Positions 3 through 36,767 of a stretch of 64,000 nucleotides of DNA are shown piece after piece. The stretch's first letter is position 1, and every line of letters begins with the position of its first letter. This DNA comes from Candidatus Saccharimonadota bacterium (lineage in GTDB: Bacteria > Patescibacteriota > Saccharimonadia > Saccharimonadales > Saccharimonadaceae), in assembly GCA_017432025.1 (NCBI GenBank), contig JAFRJX010000002.1:1-64000 (forward strand), given 5' to 3'. The position numbers and the translations under genes were made by a program. Under the pieces are notes generated by a model, which was not told where the DNA came from, searched no databases, and was given only the letters and a program-made list of their open reading frames with translations.

Positions 3-224
3 ATGTGTAATATGATAGATAAAGAATTAAGATTTAAGAGACTTGCCGAACTTAGGGGTAACCGAATAATTAAAGATCTTAGGTTGTTAAGCAACCTATC
101 TAACAAAAGTAATTATTCATATTCGGCTGATGAAGTGAAAGCTATTTTTAATGCTATTGACGATGAATTAAAAAATACTAAACAGTGTTTTAAAAAAGAT
201 ACCAGAAGAAAGATAAGCTTATGA
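3..224 (+). CDS. Small hypothetical protein, first gene of the GHKL ATPase cassette (possibly 5'-truncated)
   Basis: A 73-residue, highly charged, apparently all-helical protein that I do not recognise. The first ATG is at base 3, so the true start may lie outside the window; an alternative in-frame ATG is at base 12. The stop codon overlaps the ATG of the next gene in an ATGA arrangement at 221-224, so the two are almost certainly translated together. The small size, lack of a membrane segment and coupling to an ATPase suggest an accessory or regulatory subunit, but this is inference from position only. Confidence 0.55.
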   Translation: MCNMIDKELRFKRLAELRGNRIIKDLRLLSNLSNKSNYSYSADEVKAIFNAIDDELKNTKQCFKKDTRRKISL

Positions 225-2074
225 GTATGATTTGGCATTTTCCAAAATTGGATGGTGGTGACGATGAGGGGGTTAATGATAACGGGGTATGGATTTTTGA
301 GGGTAACCGAGAAAATTCTATCACTAGAGAGTGTATACAAAACTCACTTGATGCACAGTTAGATGAATCTAAGCCAGTACGCGTCGTTTTTTCTAATTTT
401 GAGATTAATAGTTACGAGATACCTTTAATTGATGAACTTAGTGATGTTGTTAGAAGAGCAAGAGATTTTGCCGCCGATGACGAAAGAGCTACGAAGTTGT
501 ATGAAGAGGCCGTACGATGCATTAACTCGCAAAGAATAAGAATTCTAAAAATCAGCGATTACAATACATTCGGATTGGATGGTGGAGATTCTAGAAAAGA
601 CGACGGTAGATGGTATCGCTTGCTCTACTCGACTGGCTCTAGCCAGAACAGGAATGGTAGTGGTGGTTCATTCGGTATTGGGAAAAGTGCGCCATTTACT
701 GCTTCTATGATTAGGACGGTTTTTTATTCTACTATGCTCGGGGATGGGTCAGTGGCGTTTCAGGGTAAGACAAGATTGTCTAGTTTTGAAGATGATAACC
801 ATGTAGTTCGCCGTGGCTCTGGACGCTATGGGATAAGAAACGAGAGCGGATCGGCGTCTTCGATTCGCGATCGTTTATTGATTCCGGATGTTTTTGAAAG
901 GAACGAGCGTGGTACAGATGTTTTTATTGTGGGTTATAAATGTGCTGACGATTGGAAGAAACGTATTATAGAGTCTGTTATAAAGAGTTTTTACGTTGCT
1001 ATTATTGAGAATAAGCTGGAAGTGATTATAGAAGATGACAATAATCCGCAGATCCTTATTAATTCTGAAACATTAGCTGAAATTGTTGATAGTTATATAA
1101 CTGATGATGAGACTCTTTTGTACTATAACGCGGCAATTAGCCCTGACCGACGTTTCGAAGATGATCTTCCTGGCATTGGTAAAGTTGAAATGAGAGTGCG
1201 TTTAGGTGATGGGAAGAAACGTATCCAGGGAATGAGAAAAACGCTAATGAAAATTCATGAATTTACGCATCTGCGTAAAGCATTGAACGACGATTATACT
1301 GGCATTGTTATTGTTAGAGGCGATGATGGAAATAGTGAGCTTCGTAGACTTGAACCGCCTGCACATGATAGGTGGGATCCTGAGTTGGGAGAAACAACCG
1401 CTCAAGATGTTTTTAAACGTTTGCGGGATTGGGTTTGGTCTAATCTCAAATCTATTGCCAATGAAAAAACATACAATATAGAAGAAATACCAGAATTAAG
1501 TAAATATCTTCCTCAAGATATGGCAGATGATGATAGAGATCCGATTTTTTATAGTACGGGCTCTGGTACTACTAACGATGGTAATACTGATATTGAAACC
1601 GCTAGTGAGAGAAATACTATTGATAGTCAGGAAAGTGAAGTAACAATCGATATTGCTAACCGAATGGCGAATGTAAGAAAACCTGGTACGACGGGGGGAG
1701 ATAGAAAAAAACGTGGCAAGAACCGCGGTAAAGGTGGTGGTAAAGGTGGTGGCGCTAGTGGACAAGAAGGTGGCACTAATTATGTTGATGTTAGCGATAT
1801 GCACTCAAGGACAAAAGAACGTTTTATTGGTGGTAGAAGGGTTTATGAAATAACTATTACTCCAACGAAAGAGGACTCAGGAGATATACGTATTATCGGT
1901 ATTGGCGATGGACAGAATTATCCATTAGATGTTGAATGCGCGTATGATGAACAAGGAAATGAGCTTGAGAAGGACGGTGAAACTATTAAGGGCCTTTCTT
2001 TTAAGATGAATGAGACTAGAAAAATTACCGTCAAACTTAAGAGCTCTAGACGTTATATTGTAGGAGTTGCATGA
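221..2074 (+). CDS. GHKL (Bergerat-fold) ATPase, MORC/MutL/Hsp90-like, uncharacterised
   Basis: A 617-residue protein whose N-terminal part carries the ATP-binding signature of the GHKL superfamily. There is an N-box with E37, N41 and D44-A45, a degenerate G1 box with D113 and G118, and a glycine-rich lid GGSFGIGKSAPF at residues 148-159. The middle has no motif I recognise. A Gly/Lys-rich low-complexity linker lies at about residues 488-515 (bases 1687-1770), followed by a roughly 100-residue beta-rich tail. GHKL proteins of this size outside signalling often act as ATP-gated clamps on DNA or protein. It overlaps both neighbours by 4 bases, so the cassette is one operon. Nothing resembles a histidine kinase (no HisKA, no membrane segment) or MutL mismatch repair (no endonuclease motif). 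A role in defence is inferred from architecture only. Confidence 0.85.
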   Translation: MSMIWHFPKLDGGDDEGVNDNGVWIFEGNRENSITRECIQNSLDAQLDESKPVRVVFSNFEINSYEIPLIDELSDVVRRARDFAADDERATKLYEEAVRCINSQRIRILKISDYNTFGLDGGDSRKDDGRWYRLLYSTGSSQNRNGSGGSFGIGKSAPFTASMIRTVFYSTMLGDGSVAFQGKTRLSSFEDDNHVVRRGSGRYGIRNESGSASSIRDRLLIPDVFERNERGTDVFIVGYKCADDWKKRIIESVIKSFYVAIIENKLEVIIEDDNNPQILINSETLAEIVDSYITDDETLLYYNAAISPDRRFEDDLPGIGKVEMRVRLGDGKKRIQGMRKTLMKIHEFTHLRKALNDDYTGIVIVRGDDGNSELRRLEPPAHDRWDPELGETTAQDVFKRLRDWVWSNLKSIANEKTYNIEEIPELSKYLPQDMADDDRDPIFYSTGSGTTNDGNTDIETASERNTIDSQESEVTIDIANRMANVRKPGTTGGDRKKRGKNRGKGGGKGGGASGQEGGTNYVDVSDMHSRTKERFIGGRRVYEITITPTKEDSGDIRIIGIGDGQNYPLDVECAYDEQGNELEKDGETIKGLSFKMNETRKITVKLKSSRRYIVGVA

Positions 2075-2892
2075 TGGATAATTACATACCATACCCATAT
2101 CCAGTTTTAGGAAATGATGACGATTTTAATGGACATTTTACACCAAGTATGACATATAGTATCAATCCAACTGATGTGTCACTTGAAATAAGGTTTGATC
2201 TTGAGAATAATTATATTGAGCAATTAATTCAGGACGGTCGTGCTTCGTTTTTCATTGAAATCTCTTGTAGTAAAACTTATTATCGAAGATTTATAAAGAC
2301 CGATAAACTCTGTCTATCATATAAGGATTCTTCAAGGAAATTAAGAGGGAGGGTCGATGTTTCTTTCTTCATATGCACTAATGAAGCGATTGAGGATTAT
2401 TGTCCGTTGGGCGAATTATGCTTTGTTGAAGCGGGTGATATTATTGCAGTCGGTGGAGATGCTTCATTTGTGGCGGAGAAAGAATTTGATCCACTAAAAG
2501 CCCCAATTAAATCTATAGTAAAAATTACAAAATTAGATAAACCTCAAGATGAATTCACTATGGTCTATAAAGATGAATTTATTACTATCTGCATACCGGA
2601 AGATATGTGGGATCTTTATGAAAATGCCGCTAAAGATGCCGGCGCTGCGGAAATGTTGCACGCAAGTATCGTCCTTCCTGCATTAATGGATGCCATAGAT
2701 ACTTTAAAAGGAAAGGGTGATGCTAAGGATGCCGAGTTTGCGAATGCGCCGTGGGCGCTTAAGTTATCCGAATTATGTAATAACCGAAACATCGATATGG
2801 AAAGCGATTCTCTCATTATTGCGCAAAAGCTATTAGGTAATCCTGTAAAGAGGGCGCTTGACTGGTATGAAAAAAAGGAGGATGATGAGTAA
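2071..2892 (+). CDS. Hypothetical protein, GHKL ATPase cassette
   Basis: A 273-residue soluble, acidic protein with no motif I can name. The N-terminal two thirds look beta-rich with a Pro/Tyr-rich start. The C-terminal third, from about residue 180, is helical and ends in a charged Lys/Asp/Glu tail. The start ATG overlaps the stop of the ATPase gene, and its 3' end overlaps the next gene's start, showing strict co-expression. It has no signal peptide or membrane span. It could be an adaptor for the ATPase, but no family assignment is supported. Confidence 0.7.
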   Translation: MMDNYIPYPYPVLGNDDDFNGHFTPSMTYSINPTDVSLEIRFDLENNYIEQLIQDGRASFFIEISCSKTYYRRFIKTDKLCLSYKDSSRKLRGRVDVSFFICTNEAIEDYCPLGELCFVEAGDIIAVGGDASFVAEKEFDPLKAPIKSIVKITKLDKPQDEFTMVYKDEFITICIPEDMWDLYENAAKDAGAAEMLHASIVLPALMDAIDTLKGKGDAKDAEFANAPWALKLSELCNNRNIDMESDSLIIAQKLLGNPVKRALDWYEKKEDDE

Positions 2893-3688
2893 TCTAAAGG
2901 TTTTCAAAAATCAGTATTTATTGAATTTAGAGTTATCGGTTGGTGATAATCTCGATCATTATAGAAGCGTCGATAGTAGTTTTTTTAACGGTGATGGCAC
3001 CGGCGTTTTTGAAACGACTTGCGTTGTTCCTGATGAGGTACCGATTCTTATTCCAAACATCTCAAGCGAGTCTGAGAATGCTATACATTTATTCGAATAT
3101 CTGTCGCAAATTGATAATACCGTGGCTTCTGATCCCCGCCTTTGGGCGTATTTGGTACATGTGACTTTTTGTGATTACGCAATGAAACGTTGGGGTTCTG
3201 TTGAGAAAGATGAACTTAAAAAGAGAGTATTGAATCGTTTTTTTACGGATGGCGATGCGCGTACTCTTAGGCGCCAAGCAATATCTAGGCTATGGTGGGC
3301 GACAAAACTTACCGTGGCACCGTGGGAAGATGACCCGTTCTTTGAACCATTTAGGAAGGATGATAGATACTATTATACGAGAGTTTTAATGCGCGATGAG
3401 ACCACTTCGTCTGATTTACTTGAGCGTGTCCAACTGGCTTCTCGTCCTCAGTTATTAATCTTAATTCTTGATTTTCTTGATAATAATCCAAGATTTAGAA
3501 AGCGTGTGCTATGGCGAGAATTTATGAAGGAAATAATCTTAACTTTAGGGTACCGCAAAATAATGGCTTTAGATTTAAAAGCATTACAGTCTGAGATTAG
3601 CGATATCGCGTTCGAAGTAGAAAAAAGATATAGTAATGAAAAAAAACAAGATAAAACTGAAGAAATTGGAGGCAATGATTATTCGTAG
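2885..3688 (+). CDS. Hypothetical helical protein, last gene of the GHKL ATPase cassette (possibly DUF6339-like)
   Basis: About 267 residues. The start is set at 2885 because a strong AAGGAGG lies just upstream at 2875-2881; an ATG at 2882 is equally in frame, and an upstream ATG at 2858 lacks such a site. The protein is helical, with a central aromatic and arginine-rich stretch containing AISRLWWATKLT. From memory this resembles proteins labelled DUF6339, but that assignment is unverified and the function of that family is unknown to me. It overlaps the preceding gene by 8 bases. The hairpin at 3721-3743 lies just after the stop. Confidence 0.7.
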   Translation: MSNLKVFKNQYLLNLELSVGDNLDHYRSVDSSFFNGDGTGVFETTCVVPDEVPILIPNISSESENAIHLFEYLSQIDNTVASDPRLWAYLVHVTFCDYAMKRWGSVEKDELKKRVLNRFFTDGDARTLRRQAISRLWWATKLTVAPWEDDPFFEPFRKDDRYYYTRVLMRDETTSSDLLERVQLASRPQLLILILDFLDNNPRFRKRVLWREFMKEIILTLGYRKIMALDLKALQSEISDIAFEVEKRYSNEKKQDKTEEIGGNDYS

Positions 3689-3749: not shown

Positions 3750-4406
3750 TTAATAGATACCGCGGTTGCGGTTGAACTCTTGCTGGGTTTTTTTGAACTG
3801 CTCGGGATCGCGAGTGAGGCGGTCAACTTCTTTTAAGAATTCGTAGTATTCTTCTTTCAAGAAATAGATTTTGGTTGCGGCGTAGCCGTCCGGCGAGTAC
3901 TTGCGACGAAGAATCTTGCGAACCGCTTCGATGAGCTCATCTTCCGTGTAGTCCGGATGAAGTGTCTTGTTGTAATCGTAGGCGCGTGCCAGGATTTCGT
4001 TGACACTATACGAACGGTCGGCAGAAGAAACGATTTTACCGTAAATGCTACGAGGCTCCGGGCGTTCCGATGAAGCGCGGTGGTCTTCCACGGCTTCCGC
4101 CATGATTTCGATTTCTTCCGGCAGGAAGAGTTTCCTCAACTTTTCGTCGCGACGAAGCAGATAGGCAGACCATTCGTGATGTGTCTTGTTCGCAATTTCA
4201 CGGCCGAGGTCGTGATAGGCGGCGACGACGTAAACCATATTCACGTCGACTTCGGTATCAGTATTCTCGAGCAGAGAAACAATCCTAAGGCTACGTTCGA
4301 TGACGTTTTTGATGTGGTCGCCGGTGTGGCCGGGAAGCGCATCGTAACGTGGTAAGATTTCCGTTTCTATATACCTACGTACTTTTGGACAAACATGTGT
4401 GTTCAT
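3750..4406 (-). CDS. HD-domain phosphohydrolase
   Basis: A 218-residue protein of the HD superfamily of metal-dependent phosphohydrolases. The N-terminal GHTGDH supplies the first histidine and YHDLGRE supplies the HD pair; a further DHR and a SADR motif supply later metal ligands. The substrate cannot be deduced; small stand-alone HD proteins act on nucleotides or other phosphate esters. The start at 4406 is chosen because TTAGGAGGG lies 6 bases upstream of that ATG; the open frame runs further upstream into hairpin-rich DNA that is unlikely to be coding. A TGTTATAAT promoter lies about 45 bases upstream (around 4455). The gene is transcribed towards the GHKL cassette and is probably unrelated to it. 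Confidence 0.85.
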   Translation of the reverse strand: MNTHVCPKVRRYIETEILPRYDALPGHTGDHIKNVIERSLRIVSLLENTDTEVDVNMVYVVAAYHDLGREIANKTHHEWSAYLLRRDEKLRKLFLPEEIEIMAEAVEDHRASSERPEPRSIYGKIVSSADRSYSVNEILARAYDYNKTLHPDYTEDELIEAVRKILRRKYSPDGYAATKIYFLKEEYYEFLKEVDRLTRDPEQFKKTQQEFNRNRGIY

Positions 4407-4493
4407 AATTACCCTCCTAATGTACAGATTAGCTCTGATAGCTTGGGATATATTATAACATATTTTGGTGGGTAATGCATATTTGGCGGGAGT

Positions 4494-4545
4494 TAGCTCG
4501 CTACGCTCGCTATTCGCCTTCGGCGAGCGAACCCTGGGCTCGCCT
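4494..4545. repeat. GC-rich cluster of short hairpins
   Basis: Noncoding DNA between the HD hydrolase promoter and the tRNA-Glu terminator. It is packed with short inverted repeats such as TAGCTCGCTACGCTCGCTA and TTCGCCTTCGGCGA and is clearly GC-richer than its surroundings. A similar hairpin-dense spacer occurs between tRNA-Phe and tRNA-Lys at 26109-26168. Confidence 0.4.
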
Positions 4546-4560
4546 CTCTCCGACATTATC

Positions 4561-4604: not shown

Positions 4605-4679
4605 TGGTGATCTCGGCGGGAGTCGAACCCGCATTGTCGGGATGAAAACCCGATGTACTAACCGCTATACTACGAGACC
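4605..4679 (-). tRNA. tRNA-Glu (anticodon UUC)
   Basis: It folds as a complete cloverleaf. The acceptor stem GGTCTCG pairs with CGAGATC, followed by discriminator A and an encoded CCA. The anticodon stem TCGGG/CCCGA encloses loop TTTTCAT with anticodon TTC, and the T arm is GCGGG-TTCGACT-CCCGC. It stands alone and is followed directly by the long hairpin terminator. Confidence 0.95.
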
Positions 4680-33998: not shown

Positions 33999-36767
33999 AT
34001 GGCGAAAAAGGAAAAGAAGCCGACTGATAAATTGGCTGATAAAACTGCCCTCACTAAATTTTTGCAGGGCGTGTTTGGTGACGCCCAGAAGAAGATTCTG
34101 AAGAAATACTGGAAACGTGCACAAGAGATTAATAAGCTTGAGCCAAAATACGAAAAAATGACCAACAAAGAGCTCGCAGCTCAGACTGACATTTTTAAGA
34201 GTAAAATTGAAAAAGCCCTGAAAACCGCTAAGCTCGAAGAAAAGAAGGTTGATACTAAGGGCAAGAAGGCTAAGAAGTCTAAGAAAGCCAAGAAGCATGT
34301 ACAGGCTGATGATACGAAGATCTTAAACGAGCTTCTTCCAAATGCTTTTGCTGTAGCCAGAGAAGCATCGAAGCGTGTTTTAAAGATGCGCCCATATGAT
34401 GTGCAGCTAATTGGTGGTATGGCGCTTCACGAAGGTAATGTAGCTGAGATGAAGACGGGTGAAGGTAAAACTCTTGTTGCTATGCTCCCGGCATATCTTA
34501 ATGCTCTTACTGGACGTGGTGTGCATATCGTTACGGTAAACGATTATCTTGCACAACGTGATGCCGGTTGGAACGGTCCAATCTACGATTTTCTCGGTAT
34601 TTCTGTTGGTGTAATCATTAATGAAGCTTCATTCATTTATGATAAAGAATATGAAAATGAAGAGCATGATGATGAGAGATTTCGCCATCTCCGCCCATGC
34701 ACGAGAAAAGAAGCTTATAACGCAGACATTACTTATGGTACGAACAACGAGTTCGGTTTCGATTATCTCCGCGACAACATGACCTCTGAAGTTCAGTATC
34801 TTCGCCAGCGCGAATTGAACTTTGCAATTGTGGATGAGGTGGACTCTATCTTAATCGATGAGGCCAGAACGCCACTCATTATCTCGGCGCCGGCTGGTGA
34901 TAACCCGGAATCGTATTATCAATTTGCAAAAGTTGCCGGTAGACTTACTCCGGATGATTATGTCTTTGATGAAAAGCGTCGTTCGGTGACATTGACCGAT
35001 GCTGGTATTGATAAAGTCCAGAAGATTTTGGGTGTCGATAATTTGTATTCAACTAAGAATACGCGTCTCGTGTATCACATGGAACAGGCTCTTCGCGCAG
35101 AAGTAATCTTCAAGCGTGATAAAGACTATGTGGTGACGAATTCTGGCGAAGTAATCATTGTAGACGAGCACACTGGCCGCTTGATGCAAGGGCGCCGTTA
35201 CAACGAAGGTCTACATCAGGCGATTGAAGCTAAGGAAGGTGTGGTGGTAAAGCAAGAATCGATGACGCTTGCCACGATTTCATTCCAGAACTTCTTTAGA
35301 CTTTACAAGAAGCTTTCGGGTATGACCGGTACGGCATTTACTGAAGCGGAAGAATTCCAACAGATTTATGCACTTGATGTGATTCAAATTCCACCAAACA
35401 AGCCGATTATCCGTGTAGATAAAGACGATTTGATTTACAAGACTAAGGCAGGGAAACTTCGCGCCATTGCAGCTGAAGTGAAGAAGTATCACGACAAAGG
35501 CCAGCCGGTGCTCGTGGGTTCCGGCTCAATTGCGAACAACGAGGAAATCGCAAGGTATCTAGATCAATTTGGTTTACCATATGAAATCCTGAACGCCAAG
35601 AACAACGAGCGTGAGGCTGCGATTATTGCGAAAGCCGGTGAAAAAGGCGCGATTACGCTTGCAACGAACATGGCAGGTCGTGGTACCGATATTAAACTTG
35701 GTAAAGGTGTTAAAGAGCTTGGTGGCCTCGTCGTGATTGGTTCGGAACGTCATGATTCGCGTCGCGTAGATAACCAGCTCCGTGGTCGTGGTGGCCGTCA
35801 GGGCGATCCGGGCACGACACAGTTCTTCGTGTCGTGTGAAGATGATTTGATGCGCATTTTCCAAGGCGACCGCGTGAAGATGATTCTTACGAGACTGGGC
35901 GTAGATGAAGATACGCCAATTCAAACGAAGACGATTTCGAAGACTCTCGAGGCCGCACAAAAGCGCATCGAAGGATTTAACTTCGATTCACGCAAGAATG
36001 TGGTGCAATACGATAACGTGATTAACCGTCATCGTAAGGTAGTTTACATGATTCGCCGTAAGATTCTTGAGGGTGAAGACATTTATAAGGAAATTCATCG
36101 TTTAATGGTGGACGAGACGAAGATGCTAACCGAATTCTCGTCACGCGTGAACAAGAATTTCAACGAAGAATTTAAGGCCGTCTTTGATTTCGATGATGAC
36201 TTGATTTCCGAAATTGGTTTGAAGCGTAAAGAAAAAGACCGTGAGAAATTGGCGCTTGAGGCAGTTGAACAAGCTTACAAACTGAAAGAAGATGAATTTA
36301 CACCAGAGATTATGCGTAAGATTGAGCGTGAAGTATATCTCAAAGTGCTCGATACTTTGTGGATGCAACACCTCGAGAATATGCAACATCTCCGTGAAGG
36401 TATTCACTGGCGTTCAGTTGGCCAACGCGATCCACTCGTGGAGTATCGTTCCGAATCGCAAAAACTCTTTGATGGTTTACAAAGGAATCTCCGTGAAGAA
36501 GTGCTTCATATTCTCCTTTCAATCACGCCGGCTGAGGCTCGCGATGATAATGTAACGGATGGTGAAGAATATGAATCTGAGCTCACTAAGATGGCGGGCA
36601 AACAAACCGAGCGTGGCGTGAACGAAATTCAGAAGGGCGAAAAGAATCTCGATTCTGAATTTAAGAAGAAAACTCCGGGTGCAACTGGCAAGAAAGCACC
36701 AGTGAGGAAATCGAAGAAAAAATCTGGTTCAAAGAAGAAATCTTCCAAGTCGAAAAAACGTAAATAA
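33999..36767 (+). CDS. secA: Preprotein translocase ATPase SecA
   Basis: 922 residues. It powers protein export through SecYEG. Walker A is MKTGEGKTLVAM, Walker B is VDEVDSILIDEARTPL, with AGRGTDIKLG, DNQLRGRGGRQGDPG and LWMQHLENMQHLREGI. Two oddities: a Lys-rich insertion of about 30 residues (about 82-105, TKGKKAKKSKKAKK) before the DEAD-motor domain, and a Lys/Ser-rich C-terminus (SKKKSGSKKKSSKSKKRK) in place of the zinc-binding tail. TGCTAGAAT and GGAG precede the ATG. Confidence 0.96.
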   Translation: MAKKEKKPTDKLADKTALTKFLQGVFGDAQKKILKKYWKRAQEINKLEPKYEKMTNKELAAQTDIFKSKIEKALKTAKLEEKKVDTKGKKAKKSKKAKKHVQADDTKILNELLPNAFAVAREASKRVLKMRPYDVQLIGGMALHEGNVAEMKTGEGKTLVAMLPAYLNALTGRGVHIVTVNDYLAQRDAGWNGPIYDFLGISVGVIINEASFIYDKEYENEEHDDERFRHLRPCTRKEAYNADITYGTNNEFGFDYLRDNMTSEVQYLRQRELNFAIVDEVDSILIDEARTPLIISAPAGDNPESYYQFAKVAGRLTPDDYVFDEKRRSVTLTDAGIDKVQKILGVDNLYSTKNTRLVYHMEQALRAEVIFKRDKDYVVTNSGEVIIVDEHTGRLMQGRRYNEGLHQAIEAKEGVVVKQESMTLATISFQNFFRLYKKLSGMTGTAFTEAEEFQQIYALDVIQIPPNKPIIRVDKDDLIYKTKAGKLRAIAAEVKKYHDKGQPVLVGSGSIANNEEIARYLDQFGLPYEILNAKNNEREAAIIAKAGEKGAITLATNMAGRGTDIKLGKGVKELGGLVVIGSERHDSRRVDNQLRGRGGRQGDPGTTQFFVSCEDDLMRIFQGDRVKMILTRLGVDEDTPIQTKTISKTLEAAQKRIEGFNFDSRKNVVQYDNVINRHRKVVYMIRRKILEGEDIYKEIHRLMVDETKMLTEFSSRVNKNFNEEFKAVFDFDDDLISEIGLKRKEKDREKLALEAVEQAYKLKEDEFTPEIMRKIEREVYLKVLDTLWMQHLENMQHLREGIHWRSVGQRDPLVEYRSESQKLFDGLQRNLREEVLHILLSITPAEARDDNVTDGEEYESELTKMAGKQTERGVNEIQKGEKNLDSEFKKKTPGATGKKAPVRKSKKKSGSKKKSSKSKKRK

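What the first reader, a model, noticed from the sequence alone, without database searches (positions are those of the whole stretch)
3..3688. Four-gene cassette built on a GHKL-fold ATPase, possibly an undescribed defence system
Four overlapping genes encode a small helical protein, a 617-residue Bergerat-fold ATPase (E37, N41, D44; lid GGSFGIGKSAPF) with a Gly/Lys linker, and two proteins of about 270 residues with no recognisable enzyme motif. Stop-start overlaps throughout imply a multi-protein machine. The cassette is AT-richer than the downstream backbone. GHKL ATPases of the MORC/MutL type are recurrent parts of bacterial defence cassettes, but this combination matches none that I can name. 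The upstream edge is cut, so further components may exist.
Basis: partly seen in the sequence, partly recalled or inferred. Interest (0 to 1): 0.75.

Follow-up and report, generated by a model that had tools for sequence, protein, structure and literature searches.

The report
GHKL-ATPase defence candidate beside restriction-modification genes
A four-gene cassette built round a MutL/MORC-like ATPase is real and conserved across many phyla; three of its genes are already catalogued as an untested phage-defence candidate (PDC-M33), and here it sits in one island with a DNA methyltransferase and a probable restriction enzyme found on the neighbouring contig.

Summary
Confirmed: S (73 aa), A (617 aa, GHKL-type ATPase), B (273 aa) and C (~270 aa) overlap stop-to-start at 3-3688. 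A, B and C match PADLOC's phage-defence candidate PDC-M33A/B/C (E 3e-135, 7e-49, 6e-30), so the combination is catalogued but, in the papers searched, untested. A-B-C keeps its order in nearly all of 92 loci from many phyla. S is in no library searched, yet lies directly before A in 35 of them. The cut edge is resolved: contig C7 ends in ligA, the genome's only C5-cytosine methyltransferase and a probable restriction enzyme; relatives join ligA to tRNA-Glu/pyk, so C7 and the window are neighbours. Of 59 loci with 5 kb on both sides, 31 have a C5 methyltransferase (about 0.6 expected), but 13 of 50 host genomes have none. B models as an Ig-like sandwich plus helices, C as all-helical; neither has conserved nuclease residues. 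Best reading: a mobile, nuclease-free, ATP-driven DNA-engaging defence module, usually embedded in restriction-modification loci. The GHKL call rests on ordered motifs, not on Pfam or a fold; the mechanism is inferred.

The parts
3..224 (+). S: 73-aa protein, probably helical, conserved core NLxNxxNYxY; fourth component not covered by the PADLOC models
   Evidence: ORF; alignment with five plasmid homologues, 36-49% identity, 14 invariant columns; directly upstream of A in 35 of 92 loci; no meaningful Pfam, PADLOC or NCBIfam match
221..2074 (+). A: 617-aa GHKL-type ATPase, PDC-M33A; probable paraMORC2-type (ExxxH = E378-H382)
   Evidence: PADLOC E 2.5e-135; invariant motif residues in 54 homologues; ordered weak matches to MutL/Hsp90 motif boxes
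326..355 (+). N-box of A, residues 36-45 (RECIQNSLDA: E37, N41, D44)
   Evidence: E37, N41, D44 in 54 of 54 homologues; aligns with MutL SVVKELVENSLDA
662..697 (+). ATP-lid motif of A, residues 148-159 (GGSFGIGKSAPF)
   Evidence: G149, G152, G154 in 54 of 54, K155 in 52 of 54
1538..1795 (+). Low-complexity flexible linker of A (about residues 440-525) joining the ATPase half to a small C-terminal domain
   Evidence: Alignments: present in all 54, length and charge variable
2071..2892 (+). B: 273-aa PDC-M33B; N-terminal Ig/FnIII-like beta-sandwich plus helical C-terminus
   Evidence: PADLOC E 6.5e-49; AlphaFold model pLDDT 90; VIA-align Z up to 8.8 to Ig-like domains over residues about 10-138
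2858..3688 (+). C: PDC-M33C / DUF6339, nearly all-helical protein (likely start ATG 2882 or 2885)
   Evidence: Pfam PF19866 E 4.5e-34; PADLOC E 6.4e-30; AlphaFold model pLDDT 93 with no confident PDB match
3750..4556 (-). HD-domain protein in the same variable slot (ligA to tRNA-Glu); not shown to belong to the system
   Evidence: Pfam HD E 7.2e-10; present in 11 of 36 genus genomes including this one
4605..4679 (-). tRNA-Glu marking the right boundary of the variable slot
   Evidence: ARAGORN; same tRNA beside ligA in relatives L137 and L141

Best explanation
A laterally acquired anti-phage/anti-plasmid candidate module of the PDC-M33 kind, embedded in a type II C5-cytosine restriction-modification island. 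Shown: the S-A-B-C operon, its conservation, its membership of PDC-M33, its place beside a C5 methyltransferase and a probable restriction enzyme between ligA and tRNA-Glu, and the absence of any conserved nuclease-like site in B and C. Inferred: A works like MutL/MORC, an ATP-gated dimeric clamp (N-terminal ATPase, flexible linker, small C-terminal domain) that closes on DNA; B (Ig-like plus helices) and C (helical) are adaptor/scaffold subunits that recruit or sense the target, and S is a small helical cofactor needed by some lineages. The complex would trap or remodel incoming DNA, either blocking it by itself or presenting it to whichever nuclease is at hand. Because it occurs with many different nucleases and in genomes without any C5 methyltransferase, I rank independent action first and obligate dependence on the R-M enzymes second.
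For: PADLOC matches A/B/C. Order A-B-C in nearly all 92 loci over Bacillota, Bacteroidota, Actinomycetota, Pseudomonadota, several CPR phyla, Omnitrophota and a haloarchaeal plasmid. Scattered: 1 of 36 same-genus genomes, 3 full copies among 380 genomes of the phylum; the A tree mixes phyla. Defence neighbours in 59 loci with 5 kb on both sides: C5 methyltransferase 31, Vsr 15, PLD-helicase 13, Sau3AI/MutH-type 11, McrC 6, GmrS 5; expected C5 methyltransferases about 0.6; CBASS, TIR, Shedu and AbiG genes also adjacent in single loci. Own genome: the only C5 methyltransferase sits at the C7 end beside a gene for a protein with an NgoFVII-type B3 domain; relative L017 has that MTase (85% identical), that protein (61%) and S-A-B-C on one contig. 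Independence: 13 of 50 host genomes lack PF00145.
Against: No phage or plasmid challenge of any PDC-M33 locus was found in the papers searched. No Pfam ATPase model matches A and the profile link to MutL/Hsp90 is weak (best single-comparison E 0.002). Some S-A-B-C loci have no recognised defence neighbour (for example L060, L086, L096). The clamp mechanism and all interactions are inferred; no structure of A or of a complex was computed.
Confidence: 0.6

Rival explanations
1. S-A-B-C is an obligate cofactor of the neighbouring R-M enzymes: an ATP-driven looping/activation complex that links recognition of unmethylated sites to cleavage by the partner nuclease, as Iyer et al. 2008 proposed for MORC/paraMORC proteins.
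For: C5 methyltransferase within the flanks in 31 of 59 loci; MTase-(Vsr)-S-A-B-C is a compact collinear run in several CPR loci; methyltransferase, RE and S-A-B-C occur together in two Saccharibacteria despite a rearranged order; proposal in PMC2292703.
Against: 13 of 50 host genomes have no C5 methyltransferase at all, including S-carrying L060; nuclease partners differ widely (NgoFVII-B3, HNH, Sau3AI/MutH, AlwI, PLD-helicase) and some CPR loci show no RE beside the cassette.
Confidence: 0.25
2. A repair or anti-suicide module: a MutL-like helper for Vsr-type repair of deaminated 5-methylcytosine or of self-cleavage by the R-M system, not a defence effector.
For: Vsr next to the cassette in 15 of 59 loci; MutL-like motif order; this genome has no MutL.
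Against: This genome has no Vsr, most loci have none, and many hosts have no C5 methyltransferase; B, C and S are unexplained; presence is sporadic and mobile.
Confidence: 0.07
3. An abortive-infection system: the complex senses phage DNA structures and one subunit kills or arrests the cell.
For: Co-localised with CBASS, AbiG and TIR genes in some loci; multi-subunit sensor-like composition without a nuclease site.
Against: No toxin-like domain or conserved catalytic cluster in S, B or C; nothing here tests cell death.
Confidence: 0.15

Closest known systems
PDC-M33 (PADLOC-DB 2.0.0 phage-defence candidate)
   Same: A, B and C match M33A, M33B and M33C, in that order
   Different: PADLOC lists no fourth protein; S is an additional component in 35 of 92 loci. 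PDC systems are described as largely unvalidated candidates found by 'guilt by embedding' (PMC12988326, citing Payne et al. 2024)
paraMORC2 family of GHKL ATPases in R-M systems (Iyer, Abhiman and Aravind 2008, PMC2292703)
   Same: GHKL-type motifs, ExxxH motif after the presumed S5 region, prevalence in Gram-positives, R-M/Vsr/C5-methylase neighbourhoods
   Different: The text read does not mention S, B or C; cyanobacteria, said to be a main home of paraMORC2, are not among the loci found here; the sequences of the paper could not be compared
MutL
   Same: N-box; layout of ATPase half, flexible linker and small C-terminal domain; Vsr and MutH-type partners in some loci
   Different: No significant profile match; no MutL C-terminal domain; sporadic and mobile
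VcSduA, Shedu with a GHKL N-terminal domain (PMC12137116)
   Same: GHKL ATPase in an experimentally tested phage-defence protein
   Different: Single protein with its own nuclease domain; here four proteins and no recognisable nuclease

Membership tests
PDC-M33 | Protein A matching the PDC-M33A model | tested here: met
   E 2.5e-135, residues 1-616 against 1-621 of 627
PDC-M33 | Protein B matching PDC-M33B | tested here: met
   E 6.5e-49
PDC-M33 | Protein C matching PDC-M33C | tested here: met
   E 6.4e-30; also DUF6339 E 4.5e-34
PDC-M33 | Anti-phage activity | not testable with these tools
   No experiment found in the papers searched
GHKL ATPase superfamily | Motif residues in order: N-box E..N..D, D-box, glycine-rich lid, GT | tested here: met
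   E37, N41, D44, D113, G118, G149, G152, G154 in 54 of 54; T232 in 53 of 54
GHKL ATPase superfamily | Match to a GHKL/HATPase profile | tested here: not met
   0 of 54 members match HATPase models in Pfam at E 0.1; hhalign to MutL and Hsp90 weak, best E 0.002
GHKL ATPase superfamily | Bergerat fold | not tested
[quoted passage not shown]
   E378 and H382 in 54 of 54; position relative to an S5 domain not verified by structure
paraMORC2 | R-M gene neighbourhood | tested here: met
paraMORC2 | Sequence relationship to the published members | tested here: inconclusive
   Sequences are not in the text; Geobacillus thermodenitrificans is in its alignment legend and carries A here (L036), which is only suggestive
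MutL | MutL S5 and C-terminal domains (PF01119, PF08676) | tested here: not met
   No match in A; the models match E. coli MutL in the same kind of test

The most novel reading that the evidence does not exclude
S-A-B-C is a complete, nuclease-free immune system in which a MORC/MutL-like ATP clamp with an Ig-like and a helical partner traps or compacts invading DNA, a prokaryotic counterpart of eukaryotic MORC silencing, with S as an unrecorded dedicated cofactor.
Probability: 0.25. Interest if true: 0.75.

Novelty: new member of a known kind. Interest (0 to 1): 0.45.

Why it matters
PDC-M33 is a widespread candidate for which I found no tested function. The findings sharpen it: an overlooked fourth gene, a composition without a recognisable nuclease, a strong but not obligate tie to C5-methyltransferase R-M systems, and compact versions in CPR genomes. 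If it defends by itself, prokaryotic MORC-like ATPases would be immune effectors rather than R-M accessories, which bears on the origin of eukaryotic MORC silencing.

Tried and rejected
Viral-contig search with the window ATPase alone found nothing; an alignment that included divergent plasmid members had no searchable stretch. Hit L003 in G049 is a weak match (E 6e-4) confined to the linker/C-terminal region (profile 458-595), not an ATPase. GrwAB, met in the V. cholerae GHKL paper, is a DUF262 (GmrSD-type) system and unrelated. PDB sequence searches with profiles of A, B and C gave no significant hit. Structure search of C gave nothing confident (Foldseek best E 4.3; VIA-align Z 5.8 to 4pqk over 90 residues), which does not show a new fold. 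Matches of B are to common Ig-like domains and show no function. A first hhalign run used a global mode by mistake and is void. The first structure job for B failed and was rerun. An S search in plasmids with the window S found only Deinococcus. Vsr-repair helper rejected as the general role.
Full report
Observation. The window is the start of contig C8 of an 858,689-base, 8-contig genome, so the cassette begins at an assembly edge. Four ORFs lie at 3-224, 221-2074, 2071-2892 and 2858-3688 with stop-start overlaps throughout. The cassette has 38.2% GC against 44.0% for the rest of the window, in which the lowest stretch of equal length has 40.5%.

Identity. Pfam knows only C, as DUF6339 (E 4.5e-34). 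PADLOC-DB 2.0.0 matches A, B and C to PDC-M33A, PDC-M33B and PDC-M33C (E 2.5e-135, 6.5e-49, 6.4e-30). NCBIfam has no meaningful match for any of them. Papers describe PDC entries as unpublished or unvalidated candidates, found by a guilt-by-embedding approach (PMC12988326, PMC11811056); no paper in the library names PDC-M33 or DUF6339.

The ATPase. E37, N41, D44, D113, T116, G118, G149, G152, G154, R339, M343, E378 and H382 are identical in all 54 aligned homologues, K155 in 52. The order of N-box, D-box, glycine-rich lid and GT motif is that of GHKL ATPases, and hhalign places the N-box on MutL's (SLAREICQNSLDA on SVVKELVENSLDA) and, separately and weakly, the D-box and lid on theirs. Statistically this is thin: no Pfam ATPase model matches any member. 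The E378-x3-H382 pair fits the ExxxH motif that Iyer et al. give for paraMORC2 ATPases of R-M systems (PMC2292703). I call A a probable paraMORC2-type GHKL ATPase; its fold was not computed.

Conservation. A scan of GTDB genomes with A found 146 relatives, of which the best 80 were kept; with plasmids, viral contigs and the window this gives 92 loci carrying A. B is found in 90 loci and C in 89, in the order A-B-C. A small protein S lies directly before A in 35 of 92 loci; L062 has an S in another place, before an 804-aa protein with a GHKL-like N-box. In 18 S-carrying genomes S occurs once per genome (twice, close together, in one), and in 7 genomes without it beside A it is absent altogether; on the A tree S presence needs at least 9 changes by starred branches. 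S is thus a dedicated but dispensable component that PADLOC does not list.

Distribution. Only this genome of 36 same-genus genomes has A, and 3 full copies were seen in 380 genomes of the phylum (the window, G412, G469). The A tree mixes CPR, Omnitrophota, Alphaproteobacteria, Actinomycetota and Gammaproteobacteria. I read this as a laterally moving module.

The missing upstream part. The genome has exactly one C5 cytosine methyltransferase, at C7:33135-34070, and C7 ends at 35402. The C7 tail reads ligA, methyltransferase (365 aa), and convergent to it a 397-aa protein with an NgoFVII-type B3 DNA-binding domain (E 1.5e-13), taken to be the restriction enzyme; then 88 bp and the contig end. 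In some relatives ligA is followed by tRNA-Glu and pyk with no cargo between (L137: 214 bp from ligA to the 165-aa gene; L141: 157 bp from ligA to pyk, tRNA-Glu included), whereas other relatives carry unrelated genes in the slot. The window has tRNA-Glu, the 165-aa gene and pyk to the right of S-A-B-C. C7 and C8 are therefore neighbours, and the island reads methyltransferase, RE, gap of unknown length, S, A, B, C. The join itself is inferred from synteny, not sequenced. A Saccharibacteria genome (L017) carries S-A-B-C, the same RE (61% identical) and the same methyltransferase (85%) on one contig in another order; my ORF caller split its A, but one frame there carries further A sequence on both sides, so I make nothing of it.

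Neighbourhoods. In 59 loci with at least 5 kb on both sides, 31 have a C5 methyltransferase, 15 Vsr, 13 a PLD-helicase, 11 a Sau3AI/MutH-type nuclease, 6 McrC and 5 GmrS. Given 78 PF00145 matches in 161 Mb of host genomes, 0.6 loci would be expected by chance; loci are related, so the formal probability overstates the case, but the excess is large. Several CPR loci are methyltransferase-(Vsr)-S-A-B-C without an RE beside them; L018 adds an HNH nuclease. On the other side, 13 of 50 host genomes have no C5 methyltransferase anywhere, and L060, L086 and L096 show S-A-B-C without recognised defence neighbours. The tie is strong but not obligate.

Partners. B models with pLDDT 90 as an N-terminal beta-sandwich of Ig/FnIII type plus helices; C with pLDDT 93 as nearly all-helical without a confident PDB match. 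Invariant or nearly invariant positions in B and C are mainly P, W, L, A, Y and G with single R, D, N, Q, C and S; there is no cluster of acids or histidines as in nucleases. The cassette appears to lack a nuclease of its own.

How it probably works. Shown: conservation, embedding, composition. Inferred: A is an ATP-gated clamp on DNA in the manner of MutL or MORC; B and C are adaptors; S is a cofactor. The linker of A is low-complexity in all members, but its charge runs from -22 to +18, so a DNA-binding role of the Lys-rich linker seen here is not general. I rank independent action on invading DNA first because no single nuclease or methyltransferase is obligatory, and a cofactor role for the R-M enzymes second. 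A Vsr-repair helper is unlikely here: the genome has neither Vsr nor MutL by Pfam search.

Verdict. A real, conserved, mobile module; a new member of a catalogued but apparently untested defence candidate, with a newly noted fourth gene and a resolved R-M context.

Noticed in passing
between ligA (contig C7) and tRNA-Glu at window 4605-4679: A variable slot in this genus: relatives carry nothing, or secreted/membrane proteins, or metabolic genes there (L133, L135, L136, L132), while this genome carries the R-M and S-A-B-C island.
   Followed up: yes
L062 6908-9549: An S homologue stands before an 804-aa protein with a GHKL-like N-box (VEKIVNSVDAL) and no Pfam match, so S may serve more than one ATPase family.
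   Followed up: partly
L041 13803-15317; L019 6290-7615; L022 13905-14591: CBASS-type nucleotidyltransferases (one with a Cap15 effector) and a ThsB-like TIR protein lie just downstream of the cassette in CPR/Omnitrophota loci.
   Followed up: partly
L041, second S-like match about 3.8 kb after the first: A second S-like ORF appears near the end of C in the Omnitrophota locus; role unknown.
   Followed up: no
L014 1-6190 (unverified faecal phage record MT837792): A-B-C preceded by a Cro/C1-type HTH gene instead of S and followed by an HNH nuclease and a C5 methyltransferase, as in a regulated type II R-M operon.
   Followed up: partly
window 3750-4556: HD-domain protein in the same slot, present in only 11 of 36 genus genomes; it may be passenger cargo.
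   Followed up: partly
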